Of a stretch of DNA of 64,000 nt, positions 3,001 through 53,785 are shown piece after piece (the stretch's first letter is position 1; each line of letters begins with the position of its first letter). Below the pieces are notes generated by a model that saw only the letters and a program-made list of their open reading frames with translations, was not told the DNA's origin and did not search any database. The position numbers and the translations under genes were made by a program. Origin of the DNA: Ochrobactrum vermis (GTDB lineage Bacteria; Pseudomonadota; Alphaproteobacteria; Rhizobiales; Rhizobiaceae); the NCBI RefSeq assembly GCF_002975205.1, contig NZ_PCOC01000001.1, positions 1,860,001 to 1,924,000 of the forward strand. Reading direction: 5' to 3'.

Positions 3001-3494
3001 CGGAAATGCGGTCCACCGGCGAAGTCATGGGCCTCGACTACGACTATGCTCTGGCCTTCGCCAAGGCGCAGCTCGGTGCAGGCGTTGAACTGCCGCGTGA
3101 AGGCACGGTGTTCGTGTCGGTGCGTGACGAAGACAAGGAGCGCGTGCTGGGTGCAGTCCGCAAGCTTGCAAGCATCGGCTTCAAGGTGATGGCAACCGGC
3201 GGAACGCAGAAGTTCCTCGAAGCCAACGGCGTCGAATCGACCAAGGTCAACAAGGTCATCGAAGGCCGTCCGCATGTGGAAGATGCGATCCGCAATCGCC
3301 AGATCCATCTCGTCTTCAACACGACCGACAGCGCCAGCGCGGTTTCCGACTCCAAGTCGATCCGTCGTGCAACGCTGATGCAAAAGCTGCCTTACTACAC
3401 GACCATGGCCGGAGCGGAATCTGCCGCTGAAGCCATCGCAGCGCTCAAGGCCGGATCGCTGGAAGTGCGTCCGCTGCAGGATTACTTCCGCTAG
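9..3494 (+). CDS. carB: carbamoyl-phosphate synthase large subunit
   Basis: Makes carbamoyl phosphate from bicarbonate, ATP and glutamine-derived ammonia for pyrimidine and arginine synthesis, as partner of CarA (not in this window). The duplicated architecture is clear: an N-terminal ATP-grasp half opening with GPIVIGQACEFDYSG (about residue 17) and a C-terminal half opening with GPNRIGQGIEFDY (about 627), each with an ExNPRxSR metal-binding segment (EMNPRVSRSS near 350, EVNPRASRTV near 925). An MGS-like allosteric domain fills the last 150 residues. At 1161 residues it is longer than the E. coli protein (1073); much of the excess is a charged insertion near residues 150-205. Only 8 bases lie upstream, so promoter and RBS are not visible. 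The stop codon is the first part of a dispersed repeat copy. Confidence 0.97.
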   Translation: MPKRTDIKSILIIGAGPIVIGQACEFDYSGTQACKALKEEGYRIILVNSNPATIMTDPDLADATYIEPITPEVVAKIIAKERPDALLPTMGGQTALNTALSLRRMGVLERYNVEMIGAHAEAIDKAEDRALFREAMEKIGLDTPESRLANATEIKDEDRKRHEAKRAEVKSQYAGDDLDKALDKLETEWQLGEVERKQRYMTHALAKAAQALDVVGLPAIIRPSFTLGGTGGGIAYNRQEFFEIIERGLDASPTTEVLIEESVLGWKEYEMEVVRDKADNCIIICSIENLDPMGVHTGDSITVAPALTLTDKEYQIMRNASIAVLREIGVETGGSNVQFAINPANGRMIVIEMNPRVSRSSALASKATGFPIAKVAAKLAVGYTLDELDNDITGGATPASFEPSIDYVVTKIPRFAFEKFPGSSPILTTAMKSVGEVMAIGRTFQESLQKALRGLETGLTGLDEIAIPNIEEGDEKNAIRAAIGTPTPDRLRMVAQAMRIGLTTEQVHDASKIDPWFLEQIEAIVKTEERVREHGLPQDAENLRMLKAMGFSDARLAGLTGKDAEDVAKLRGELDVHPVYKRIDTCAAEFASPTAYMYSTYETPFVGQPRSEAEVSDRKKVVILGGGPNRIGQGIEFDYCCCHAAFALNDADYEAIMINCNPETVSTDYDTSDRLYFEPLTAEDVLEILRVEKEKGTLHGVIVQFGGQTPLKLANALEKAGIPILGTSPDAIDLAEDRDRFQKLLIKLDLNQPKNGIAYSVEQARLIAADLGFPLVVRPSYVLGGRAMQIITDERSLQNYLLDTVPELVPEDIKAKYPNDKTGQINTLLGKNPLLFDTYLTQAIEVDVDCLCDGKDSYVSGIMEHIEEAGIHSGDSACSLPVHTLSPEIVAELERQTAALAKALNVGGLMNVQFAIKDDEIFILEVNPRASRTVPFVAKTIGTPIAKVAARIMAGESLEDALNAYGGKPASSKRPHIAVKEAVFPFARFPGVDTLLGPEMRSTGEVMGLDYDYALAFAKAQLGAGVELPREGTVFVSVRDEDKERVLGAVRKLASIGFKVMATGGTQKFLEANGVESTKVNKVIEGRPHVEDAIRNRQIHLVFNTTDSASAVSDSKSIRRATLMQKLPYYTTMAGAESAAEAIAALKAGSLEVRPLQDYFR

Positions 3495-3595
3495 AGCATT
3501 TCCAGCAAAAGTGCGAAGCGGTTTTGCGTAGGATAATGCGTAAAAACAAACAGATAGAGCATTTCCAACGTTTAAATCAAAACAGGAAATGCTCT
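3493..3595 (+). repeat. dispersed palindromic repeat, full copy (modules A+B)
   Basis: Starts inside the carB TAG. Module A is AGAGCATTTCC, a GCAAAA/TTTTGC hairpin around GTGCGAAGCGG, and a closing AATGC. Module B is an inverted repeat with 11-bp arms, AGAGCATTTCC (3556-3566) against GGAAATGCTCT (3585-3595). Other copies are listed separately. It resembles the Bru-RS class of palindromic repeats described from Brucella, but I could not check this by alignment. Confidence 0.9.
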
Positions 3596-3620
3596 GATCG
3601 TACAGACCTAAAAGTAGAAA

Positions 3621-3649
3621 AAGCCGCCGGTCATTCCGGCGGCTTTTTT
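3621..3649 (+). terminator. intrinsic terminator after carB
   Basis: 10-bp stem AAGCCGCCGG / CCGGCGGCTT around TCATT, followed by a T run. The ABC protein gene on the opposite strand ends just beyond it at 3671. Confidence 0.85.
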
Positions 3650-3670
3650 CATGCCGGTCTCAGGCCAATT

Positions 3671-52276: not shown

Positions 52277-52303
52277 ACTCCAGTAACATCGAAAGGAAAT
52301 GCC

Positions 52304-52933
52304 ATGAGCGAGACTTACGTGCTCAAGGCCGATCTGCGCAGCCGGGTTGGTAAGGGGTCCTCCCGCGAACTTCGCCGCAACGGCCAGATTCCTGCAGTCA
52401 TCTATGGCGACAAGCAGGAGCCCCTCGCAATCGCCGTCCCTTACAAGGAAATCTTCTACAAGATTCATGGCGGTGGCTTTAAGACCACTGTTGCCACGAT
52501 CGAAGTAGACGGCAAGAAGATTCAGGTCCTCCCGAAGGACTACCAGATGGACCCAGTCCGCGACTTCCCGCAGCATGTCGACTTCCTGCGCGTTTCCGCA
52601 AAGTCGGTCGTTCACGTGAACGTTCCTGTTCACTTCAAGAACGAAGAAGCTGCACCGGGCATCAAGCGCGGCGGCGTTCTCAACATCGTTCGTCACGACG
52701 TTGAACTGATCGTTCCGGCCAATGCAATTCCGGAAGCGCTCGAATTCGACCTGACCGGCCTTGAAATCGGCGACTCGGTCCACATTTCGGCAATCAAGCT
52801 GCCGAAGGGCGCGACCGCTGCCATTCAGGATCGCGACTTCACCATCGCAACCATTGCTGCTCCTGCCGGCCTGAAGTCGGAAGAAGCTGCTTCGGAAGGC
52901 GCTGCAGAAGAAGAAGCCAAGGACGGCGAATAA
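52304..52933 (+). CDS. rplY: 50S ribosomal protein L25/Ctc
   Basis: 209 residues, the long CTC form: N-terminal 5S rRNA-binding L25 domain (MSETYVLKADLRSRVGKGSS, RRNGQIPAVIYG) plus the C-terminal TL5 domain, with an acidic Glu/Ala tail. Binds 5S rRNA in the central protuberance. ATG 52304 with AAAGGAA upstream. Followed 30 bases later by pth, a pairing common in bacteria. Confidence 0.95.
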   Translation: MSETYVLKADLRSRVGKGSSRELRRNGQIPAVIYGDKQEPLAIAVPYKEIFYKIHGGGFKTTVATIEVDGKKIQVLPKDYQMDPVRDFPQHVDFLRVSAKSVVHVNVPVHFKNEEAAPGIKRGGVLNIVRHDVELIVPANAIPEALEFDLTGLEIGDSVHISAIKLPKGATAAIQDRDFTIATIAAPAGLKSEEAASEGAAEEEAKDGE

Positions 52934-52963
52934 TCGCTTTCAGCATTTTGGGGGCTCTGAACC

Positions 52964-53731
52964 ATGCTGCTCATCGCAGGTCTTGGCAATCCGGGCCCCA
53001 AATATGCGCATAACCGGCATAATATCGGTTTCATGGCGGCGGATGAAATATTCCGCCGCCATCGCTTTTCCAACTGGCAGAAGAAGTTTCAGGCCGAGAT
53101 CGCCGATGGCGTTATCGACGGCGAGAAAGTGCTGCTGATCAAGCCGCAGACTTTCATGAACCTCTCGGGCCAGTCTGTCGGCGAGGCCATGCGCTTCTAC
53201 AAGCTCACCTCTGCCGATCTCGTCGTCATCTATGACGAACTCGACCTCGTTCCGGGCAAGCTGCGCATCAAGACCGGCGGCGGCTCCGGCGGCCATAACG
53301 GCATCAAATCCATCGACGCACATGTGCAGTCCTTCCCCGGCGGCCAGAATTATCGCCGCATGCGGCTTGGCATAGGCCATCCCGGCGCGAAAGAACTGGT
53401 GCATAATTATGTCCTCGGCGACTTCGCCAAGGCCGACAATGAATGGCTGGACACGCTTCTGGGCGCTGTCGCCGACAATGTGGGCCTGCTTGCCAAACCG
53501 GGCGACGACAACAGCTTCATGAACCGCATTGCGCTTGCCATGGGCGACGGCAATCAGCGCCCCAACGGTTTCAAGGCCGACCCTGCGCAAGTGGAAAAAG
53601 CCCCCCCTGAAGCAAAGGCCAAGGCGCAGAGCCATATTCGGCAGGCGCGGCAGAACCAGAAGAAGCCGGGCATTCCTGAAAGCGGCCCGATGGCTGAAAT
53701 GCTGAAAAAGCTGCTTGGCAAGAAGGACTAA
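52964..53731 (+). CDS. pth: peptidyl-tRNA hydrolase
   Basis: 255 residues. Recycles peptidyl-tRNA released during translation. Active-site His in NRHNIGFM (His20), Asp in YDELDLVPG, and Asn residues in FMNLSG and GGHNGIKS. The catalytic core is about 195 residues; the remaining 60 are a Lys/Ala/Gln-rich tail (EAKAKAQSHIRQARQNQKK) that is longer than the E. coli enzyme. GGGGG precedes the ATG. The TAA is the first part of a repeat copy. Confidence 0.96.
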   Translation: MLLIAGLGNPGPKYAHNRHNIGFMAADEIFRRHRFSNWQKKFQAEIADGVIDGEKVLLIKPQTFMNLSGQSVGEAMRFYKLTSADLVVIYDELDLVPGKLRIKTGGGSGGHNGIKSIDAHVQSFPGGQNYRRMRLGIGHPGAKELVHNYVLGDFAKADNEWLDTLLGAVADNVGLLAKPGDDNSFMNRIALAMGDGNQRPNGFKADPAQVEKAPPEAKAKAQSHIRQARQNQKKPGIPESGPMAEMLKKLLGKKD

Positions 53732-53785
53732 AGCATTTCCAGCAAAAGTGCGAAGCGGTTTTGCGTGGGAGAATGCGTAAAATTA
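53730..53785 (+). repeat. dispersed palindromic repeat, module A
   Basis: Begins in the pth stop (TAA-AGCATTTCC). GCAAAA/TTTTGC hairpin and AATGCGTAAAA tail; module B absent. Confidence 0.88.

What the first reader, a model, noticed from the sequence alone, without database searches (positions are those of the whole stretch)
3493..53785. Dispersed repeat whose stems co-vary between copies
About a dozen copies share a constant loop (AAAGTGnGAAnCGGTTTT) but different, matching stems. Outer pairs: GCATT/AATGC (3493, 53730), GCATGTCT/AGACATGC (20451), GTGCATC/GATGCAC (46744), GCGCATC/GATGCGC (34863). Inner pairs: GCAAAA/TTTTGC, CCCGAAA/TTTCGGG, and GCAAAGG/CCTTGC (39311). Changes on both sides at once indicate selection on, or a mechanism needing, the folded form (RNA or single-stranded DNA). 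It resembles the Bru-RS palindromes, but the co-variation suggests a structured element with sequence subfamilies, possibly mobilised in trans as REP elements are.
Basis: partly seen in the sequence, partly recalled or inferred. Interest (0 to 1): 0.75.

Follow-up and report, generated by a model that had tools for sequence, protein, structure and literature searches.

The report
Hairpin mini-transposons moved by IS630 relatives
The scattered repeats are small non-coding passenger transposons of alphaproteobacteria whose folded stems are kept paired while their sequence changes, and both they and the transposon that most likely moves them carry a cell-cycle DNA-methylation site at a fixed place near one end.

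Summary
The window holds 12 copies by covariance model, in a genome with 228 core matches. The stems co-vary beyond a tree-aware null, across the class and, more weakly, within this genome. Congeners show recent mobility: precise empty sites, the cleanest at a TA dinucleotide. The REP/RAYT idea is not supported: no PF01797 match in this genome, and 4 of 35 genus genomes have one. Instead the repeat ends (TA|GAGC...GCTC|TA) resemble those of an IS630-family insertion sequence in this genome and across Alphaproteobacteria. All 33 elements of this IS group that I could delimit carry GANTC, the CcrM methylase site, exactly 21 nt inside the end upstream of the transposase gene. Most carry two more in a promoter-like pair 23 nt apart. 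The same +21 GANTC is in 29 of 96 repeat right ends, against 0.38 by shuffling. I read the repeat as a Bru-RS/CIR-type MITE mobilised in trans by IS630-type transposases, perhaps timed by CcrM methylation. The repeat family is known; I found no report of the transposase partner or the +21 site in the searches listed.

The parts
3492..3595 (+). full-length repeat (two hairpins); its TA is part of the TAG stop of the upstream gene
   Evidence: R1 3489-3559, 79.5 bits; empty in G160 and other congeners
5603..5706 (+). full-length repeat; right end carries GANTC at +21
   Evidence: R1 73.6 bits; GANTC; empty site CAT-TA-TG in L078 and L080
10243..10310 (+). hairpin-1-only repeat at a TAA stop
   Evidence: R1 69.5 bits; context; absent in G160, G151, G158, G183
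16961..17034 (-). old repeat, kept in all six genomes compared
   Evidence: R1 41 bits; present in the five congeners
18069..18133 (-). weak, decayed repeat, shared with G160
   Evidence: R1 E 0.054; G160 counterpart 44.1 bits
20446..20549 (+). full-length repeat, GCATGTCT subfamily
   Evidence: R1 66 bits; absent in G160 and G158; Rfam RF02600 below its gathering score
22376..22480 (-). full-length repeat
   Evidence: R1 52.6 bits; absent in all five congeners (alignments for two)
34815..34911 (-). full-length repeat, GCGCATC subfamily
   Evidence: R1 75.1 bits; absent in G160
35619..35768 (+). long variant with an extra hairpin in the apical loop; its right end abuts the next copy, sharing TA
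   Evidence: R1 35619-35733; Rfam RF02604 E 1.6e-16, below its gathering score
35765..35869 (+). full-length repeat inserted at the TA end of the preceding copy
   Evidence: R1 73.7 bits; absent or rearranged in G160, G151, G158, G183
39301..39360 (+). decayed copy with GCAAAGG/CCTTGC inner stem
   Evidence: pattern with 3 mismatches; no R1 hit; missing in G160 and G183
46737..46806 (+). hairpin-1-only copy, present in G160, absent in G157 and G158
   Evidence: R1 66.5 bits
53726..53796 (+). hairpin-1-only copy at a TAA stop, present in G151
   Evidence: R1 62.8 bits; empty in G160, G157, G158, G183

Best explanation
The repeat is a non-autonomous transposon (MITE) of about 104 bp, TA|GAGC-hairpin 1-AAAACAAA linker-hairpin 2-GCTC|TA. 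IS630-family transposases most likely recognise its ends and insert it at TA dinucleotides, in intergenic DNA and often at stop codons. In each hairpin one arm is a terminal inverted repeat, whose sequence beyond GAGC drifts between lineages; the other arm follows by base pairing, which gives the covariation. SHOWN: fold and covariation; insertions with empty sites, TA-flanked at the clean ones; an IS630 group with TA|GAGC ends in the same genome; GANTC at exactly +21 in the transposase-side end of every delimited IS and in many repeat right ends. INFERRED: that this transposase moves the repeat; that pairing matters for tolerance of the insertion (as RNA) or for transposition (as DNA); that CcrM methylation of the +21 site and of the two promoter-placed sites ties transposition to passage of the replication fork.
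For: Empty versus filled sites in congeners, with TA duplicated at three clean sites. Of the 12 model copies in the window, G160 (92% identity) lacks 7 cleanly, has only remnants at the site of 2 more and shares 3; it has 5 copies of its own with model hits. Left TA in 77 and both TA in 67 of the 96 copies (of 210 model hits) with a recognisable right end (the right-end search favours TA). Two IS630 types in this genome end TA|GAGCGTTTC and TA|AAGCGTGTCGC. 52 of 66 ends of 33 delimited ISs start GAGC (the search required TA and, for 12 of them, favoured AGC). End identities: 17 nt between a repeat of G365 and IS L154; 13 nt between a repeat and IS L145 within this genome. GANTC at +21: ISs 33 of 33, always 5' of the transposase, and not part of the rule that set the ends; repeats 29 of 96, all four N seen, shuffled mean 0.38, max 5. 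Second-to-third GANTC spacing 23 nt in 23 of 24 ISs. CcrM-type RAMA domain in 37 of 37 IS genomes asked. No PF01797 match in this genome.
Against: In the 150-genome order sample repeats occur in 33 of 49 genomes with the IS and in 56 of 101 without a detectable one; no significant association (Fisher p 0.21, from the lists, both with score limits). 11 of 30 IS genomes have no repeat at E<=0.001. Beyond GAGC, repeat arms usually do not match the IS delimited in the same genome (read by eye, not tested). Not every site shows a clean TA duplication: TA left and TG right at 3508, one TA only at W 36038 in G160, extra AAAT at G151:25946, no TA at W 46755. Hairpin 1 with its constant loop was not seen in the IS ends read, so its origin is unexplained. 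67 of 96 repeat right ends lack GANTC at +21. G21 and C25 are also common at the other IS end (28 and 31 of 33) where GANTC is absent, so part of the conservation may be a transposase contact. All 33 ISs are related. No transposition was observed.
Confidence: 0.8

Rival explanations
1. REP-like element mobilised by a REP-associated tyrosine (Y1) transposase acting on single-stranded hairpins.
For: Constant loop, variable stems, stable single-stranded DNA fold (z -2.8 to -8.5 in 8 of 8 copies folded).
Against: PF01797: 0 hits in this genome, hits in 4 of 35 genomes of the genus set. TA duplication and inverted termini are DDE-type features.
Confidence: 0.03
2. MITE of another DDE family with TA-type targets, such as an IS5/IS427-group element (IS711 uses TA within YTAR and prefers Bru-RS sites).
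For: IS711 duplicates TA and favours Bru-RS (passages of PMC2266754 and PMC3163539). 16 PF13340 matches in this genome, 14 over the cut-off.
Against: Where ends of PF13340 elements could be delimited here (such as GGCAGCGTGG, GCCGTGTGGACG, TAAGGTCTGTGG) they do not resemble GAGC..., while ends of two IS630 types do. Preference of IS711 for Bru-RS as a target does not require shared ends.
Confidence: 0.08
3. The repeats spread as an IS630 MITE, but the stem covariation reflects no selection: arms stay complementary by templated repair (template switching in quasi-palindromes).
For: Known mechanism for palindromes (recalled). Would also act on both hairpins.
Against: The unpaired stretch (about 4 nt) on the 3' side and the G.G mismatch persist across most class-wide copies (by eye); templated correction would tend to remove them.
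Confidence: 0.2
4. The repeats are RNA-level regulatory elements or sRNAs spread for host benefit, not selfish passengers.
For: Three Rfam 'Brucella sRNA' families (RF02600, RF02604, RF02599) match copies below their gathering scores. Placement is biased to convergent 3' ends and away from divergent promoter regions (38, 17, 64 against 20, 32, 67 expected by bases; p 6e-6).
Against: No orientation preference in tandem regions (35 against 29, p 0.53). Sites turn over between species at about 90% identity. Avoidance of promoters and genes is also what purifying selection on a passenger gives.
Confidence: 0.12

Closest known systems
Bru-RS1/Bru-RS2 (Brucella repeated palindromic elements)
   Same: 103-106 bp palindromic repeats in the same genus, known hot spots for IS711, which duplicates TA (passages of PMC2266754, PMC3163539, PMC10800456; stem-loop family 'Bru-RS' in tables of PMC2267715)
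   Different: The original sequences (Halling and Bricker 1994) were not seen here, so identity by sequence is not tested; covariation, empty sites, IS630 partner and the +21 GANTC are added here
CIR repeats (Caulobacter CcrM-associated intergenic repeats, Chen and Shapiro 2003)
   Same: About 110 bp, two arms joined by a linker, GANTC at the terminal loop of one arm, not found inside genes, in Caulobacter and Brucella (section of PMC2229807)
   Different: That review left the mechanism of mobility open and names TIR-IS similarity only for RUP (passages); here the same feature set is tied to an IS630 group. CIR sequences themselves not compared (paper not held)
RIME (Rhizobium intergenic mosaic elements)
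   Same: Mosaic palindromic intergenic elements of rhizobia (recalled; named in passages of PMC2245857). 333 plasmid records, of Rhizobium, Sinorhizobium, Shinella, Agrobacterium and others, match the window element; 80-86% over about 97% of it in the 30 best rows
RUP of pneumococcus / IS630-Spn1
   Same: About 107 bp MITE with TA targets, proposed to be mobilised by an IS630 transposase because of matching ends (passages of PMC2229807)
   Different: Other repeat elements of that review pair their two ends with each other; here each end lies in its own hairpin and one end carries a methylase site
Dam-regulated insertion sequences (IS10, IS50, IS903)
   Same: Methylation sites in transposase promoters limit transposase expression to just after replication (passage of PMC9296519)
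   Different: GATC/Dam in E. coli; here GANTC/CcrM, and only the sites, not an effect, are shown

Membership tests
IS630-family MITE | TA target duplicated | tested here: met
   Three clean sites; several imperfect ones; left TA 77/96, both 67/96 (search favours TA on the right)
IS630-family MITE | Terminal repeats matching an IS630 element in the genome | tested here: met
   TA|GAGC core with up to 13 nt identity in this genome and 17 nt across genomes; usually only GAGC plus scattered bases
IS630-family MITE | Presence/absence polymorphism | tested here: met
   5 congeners compared across the window
IS630-family MITE | Mobilised by the IS transposase in an assay | not testable with these tools
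   No experiment possible
Bru-RS/CIR-type alphaproteobacterial repeats | 100-110 bp, two palindromic arms with a linker | tested here: met
   Full-length copies; many copies are hairpin 1 only
Bru-RS/CIR-type alphaproteobacterial repeats | GANTC at the loop of one arm | tested here: met
   +21 GANTC in 29 of 96 copies with a right end; most copies have lost or lack it
Bru-RS/CIR-type alphaproteobacterial repeats | Intergenic location | tested here: met
   0 of 119 placed copies inside a predicted CDS by 30 nt or more on both sides (simple gene caller; 10 of 129 at stretch edges left out)
Bru-RS/CIR-type alphaproteobacterial repeats | Sequence identity to the published elements | not tested
   Original papers not held for CIR and RIME and not looked up for Bru-RS; Rfam Brucella sRNA families match below their gathering scores
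REP/RAYT system | REP-associated Y1 transposase in the genome | tested here: not met
   PF01797: 0 in G000; 4 of 35 genomes of the genus set have a match
Methylation-regulated insertion sequence | Methylase sites in promoter region and end | tested here: met
   33/33 at +21; 26/33 second and 31/33 third site; spacing 23 nt in 23/24; promoter itself not mapped
Methylation-regulated insertion sequence | Methylation state changes transposase expression or transposition | not testable with these tools
   Needs experiment

The most novel reading that the evidence does not exclude
An alphaproteobacterial IS630 clade and its MITEs are built around the cell-cycle methylase CcrM: one GANTC fixed 21 nt inside one end and two more at promoter spacing make transposase expression and end recognition depend on the hemimethylated state behind the replication fork. 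That would be a Dam/IS10-like clock reached independently with another methylase, and would explain why CIR/Bru-RS repeats carry GANTC.
Probability: 0.4. Interest if true: 0.8.

Novelty: new variant of a known kind. Interest (0 to 1): 0.62.

Why it matters
A 2007 review states that CIR elements only partly resemble MITEs, that more is needed to find their mechanism of mobility, and that the role of their GANTC site was undetermined (PMC2229807 section); the passages I saw of a 2024 MITE review mention CIR only for being strictly intergenic (PMC10969869). Here the ends, target and empty sites point to one IS630 group, and the GANTC becomes a fixed feature of a transposon end. This makes both questions directly testable. 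It also suggests that some Rfam 'Brucella sRNA' families (RF02600, RF02604, RF02599) include transposon copies.

Tried and rejected
REP/RAYT partner: rejected. IS5/IS427-type partner: delimited ends do not match. Strand bias of copies on chromosome 1: seen, not in an unbiased sample (16+/10-). Idea that repeat arms track the resident IS in each genome: one good case in this genome (13 nt) and one in G038 (GAGCGGGATCA in both, read by eye), but most genomes do not show it; not claimed. Co-occurrence of IS and repeat by genome: not significant. Strand-specific RNA element: no orientation preference in tandem regions. One search was a script that failed on masked bases and was rerun. In one search my ORF-length rule put some ISs in the wrong orientation; redid this with tblastn. 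An earlier reading that the 10240 copy is shared with G160, taken from an unbroken alignment chain, was wrong: one search shows the site empty. L200 was dropped from the IS count because its ends were not credible (GANTC at 27). ISs without delimited ends were not counted: 10 of the 30 loci L154-L183 and 11 of the 24 loci L184-L207; the 33 are 20 from the first set, L145, and 12 from the second. Further identical or near-identical copies (such as L143/L144, L146-L148) were not counted again. Paper searches (10 of 10) gave no report of an IS630 partner for these repeats or of a CcrM-site IS in the titles, listings and passages I saw; most subscription papers are not in the library. No structure prediction was run.
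Full report
OBSERVATION. The core pattern occurs 13 times in the window (0.43 expected) and 228 times at up to one mismatch in the genome, with 0 in the reversed-pattern control. A covariance model (R1, 84 copies) finds 12 copies in the window at E<=0.1 and 103 in 864 kb of this genome, window included. Searches chose part of those stretches by known copies; an unbiased 400 kb gave 26 hits at E<=0.01.

ANATOMY. A full copy is about 104 nt: TA, GAGC, hairpin 1, a linker near AAAACAAA, hairpin 2, GCTC, TA. 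Hairpin 1 has an outer stem of 5-8 bp, an unpaired stretch of about 4 nt on the 3' side, an inner stem of about 6-7 bp ending in AAA/TTT, a G.G mismatch and a small hairpin TGn(GAA)n'CG whose closing pair n-n' co-varies: on 84 copies T-A 38, C-G 26, G-C 12, T-G 6, other 2. Such GNA triloops are very stable in DNA (recalled). Eight of eight copies folded as DNA score below their shuffle mean, z -2.8 to -8.5. Many copies hold hairpin 1 only.

COVARIATION. Across 91 copies (81 from other genomes plus 10 of the window; one locus can give several) 95.8% of 1530 cells pair, against 76.6% after shuffling; covariation score 0.474 against 0.141 +/- 0.008 and at most 0.069 for slid structures. With a null that re-deals substitutions along each branch of a FastTree tree, 5 column pairs are significant (E 2.8e-7 to 6.9e-4) and all 5 are in the structure; on the MAFFT alignment of this genome alone 2 are significant (E 0.0013, 0.049), both in the structure; the other 12 and 15 pairs are not significant on their own. 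The class-wide alignment was fitted to the model, which leans towards it; the MAFFT one was not. This is my script, not R-scape.

DISTRIBUTION. R1 hits 89 of 150 genomes of the order (59 of 90 genera; about 33 candidates scored in each) and 52 of 398 of the phylum, all of them listed as the same family, order or class. Named records: an exact 34-nt subfamily pattern is in Brucella (ex-Ochrobactrum), Pseudochrobactrum and Falsochrobactrum, and also in one Asticcacaulis and one Salipiger record (list stopped at its limit). 333 of 72,556 plasmid records match the window element, 261 of them Rhizobium.

MOBILITY. Alignments of the window to congeners break at element ends. Of the 12 model copies, G160 (92% identity) lacks 7 with 2-16 nt between the flanks (3489, 5600, 10240, 20446, 22410, 34843, 53726), has only remnants at the double site 35619/35765, and shares 3 (16961, 18069, 46737). 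G160 carries 5 copies with model hits that are absent here (near 6293, 19840, 36038, 51660, 55022). In G157, G151, G158 and G183 the copies present also differ. Clean empty sites: 5619, empty CAT-TA-TG, filled CAT-TA[...]TA-TC (L078, L080); near 6293, empty TTTC-TA-GCTAG, filled in G160 TTTC-TA[...]TA-GCTGG; 53745, empty GGAC-TA-AGATT in G158, filled GGAC-TA[hairpin 1]TA-AGCC. Less clean: the site at 3508 reads TA left and TG right; 36038 in G160 has one TA; G151:25946 has extra AAAT; the 46755 copy has no TA.

PARTNER. No Y1 (REP-type) PF01797 match is in this genome, and 4 of 35 genus genomes have one. Of sixteen PF13340 matches, those whose ends could be delimited have other ends. Of 11 PF13358 (IS630-type) matches, two belong to an IS of 1047 bp with ends TA|GAGCGTTTC and four to one of about 1046 bp with ends TA|AAGCGTGTCGC; the other five have unrelated ends or ends I did not delimit. 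The first group has relatives in 49 of 150 order genomes (E<=1e-15) and 28 of 398 phylum genomes (E<=1e-30), again all in the same family, order or class. I delimited 33 elements: 20 of 30 loci, L145, and 12 of 24 further loci. The search for ends required TA on both sides and, favoured AGC, so the 52 of 66 ends starting GAGC are partly built in; GANTC played no part in it. Repeat and IS ends agree over 17 nt in the best case between genomes and 13 nt within this genome. In the order sample the repeat is in 33 of 49 IS genomes and 56 of 101 others (Fisher p 0.21), so today's IS content predicts repeats poorly; IS loss and score limits could explain this, but it is evidence against a simple pairing.

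THE GANTC SITES. In 33 of 33 delimited ISs the end upstream of the transposase gene has GANTC at position 21-25: G, A, T and C invariant, the middle base A 27, T 3, G 3, while positions 5-20 vary; the other end has it in 0 of 33. I assigned the 5' end by the site and then checked by tblastn that the transposase reads away from it in 33 of 33. A second GANTC at 27-45 is in 26 of 33 and a third at 48-66 in 31 of 33; where both exist they are 23 nt apart in 23 of 24 although the second moves from 29 to 43. In 21 ISs aligned on the third site the 80% consensus is GGATTCC...TGATTCA; by a crude rule a possible start codon lies 35-37 nt on in 9 of 21. The spacing fits a promoter, which is inference. 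Repeat right ends have GANTC at +21 in 29 of 96 (12/41, 3/9, 14/46; middle base A 21, G 4, T 3, C 1) against a shuffled mean of 0.38 and maximum of 5; 114 of the 210 model hits had no recognisable right end, and a few right ends are hairpins of a neighbouring copy. CcrM-type RAMA domain: 37 of 37 IS genomes asked (controls 1 of 14), little more than expected if most Alphaproteobacteria have CcrM. GANTC methylation is cell-cycle timed in Caulobacter, where GANTC-bearing promoters peak at set times (passages of PMC4287350), GcrA reads methylated sites (passages of PMC7987155), and in S. meliloti about 99% of GANTC is methylated (passages of PMC11711589). Against over-reading: G21 and C25 are also frequent at the other IS end (28 and 31 of 33), so part of the site may be a transposase contact; 67 of 96 repeats lack it.

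GENOMIC CONTEXT. With a simple gene caller on 1.264 Mb (coding fraction 0.826), 0 of 119 copies lie inside a CDS (10 of 129 at stretch edges left out). Convergent 38, divergent 17, tandem 64, against 20, 32 and 67 expected by intergenic bases, p 6e-6; tandem orientation 35:29, p 0.53. In 19 of 73 copies downstream of a co-oriented gene the position puts the element's TA in the stop codon. Part of these stretches was chosen by known copies; the unbiased subset (25 copies: convergent 9, divergent 3, tandem 13) points the same way but is small.

MECHANISM. Most likely an IS630-type transposase binds the ends, cuts at TA and inserts the repeat at another TA; insertions at stop codons and 3' ends survive. 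One arm of each hairpin is a terminal repeat, so drift of the ends with changing transposases must be matched by the internal arm if pairing is needed. Why pairing is needed is not shown; a harmless transcript 3' end or a role of the hairpin in transposition are both possible. CcrM timing is the boldest step and is inferred only from site placement.

KNOWN OR NEW. The repeats themselves are known: Bru-RS (passages) and CIR (section), probably RIME (names only). Three Rfam Brucella sRNA families match copies below their gathering scores. I saw no report of the IS630 partner or of the fixed +21 CcrM site in the searches listed in Tried and rejected; the library lacks most subscription papers, including the founding CIR and RIME papers.

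Noticed in passing
window 35619-35768; L013:9622-9734, also L019:19690-19805 and L026:12617-12732 by length of the model hit: A long variant of the repeat carries an extra hairpin in the apical loop of hairpin 1; the window copy matches Rfam BASRCI153 (below its gathering score). The insert was read in the window, L013 and G151 copies only.
   Followed up: partly
window 10391-10504 (-): Rfam ar15 sRNA (RF02345, 76 bits) lies just downstream of the repeat at 10240.
   Followed up: no
window 6346-6745 (+): A cspA-thermoregulator-like match (RF01766), below its gathering score.
   Followed up: no
G000:C2, sampled at L022-L025 (within 120-470 kb): Four sampled 20-kb stretches of the second replicon hold no model hit, and several IS630/IS5-type hits fall in the same region; perhaps an acquired block.
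   Followed up: partly
L299 (Asticcacaulis endophyticus), L306 (Salipiger abyssi): Exact 34-nt copies of the GCRCATC subfamily pattern outside Hyphomicrobiales: horizontal transfer or contamination.
   Followed up: no
window 59956-60255 and 61855-62154: Two 300-nt stretches 80% identical inside neighbouring long minus-strand ORFs (620 and 630 aa), probably paralogous genes.
   Followed up: no
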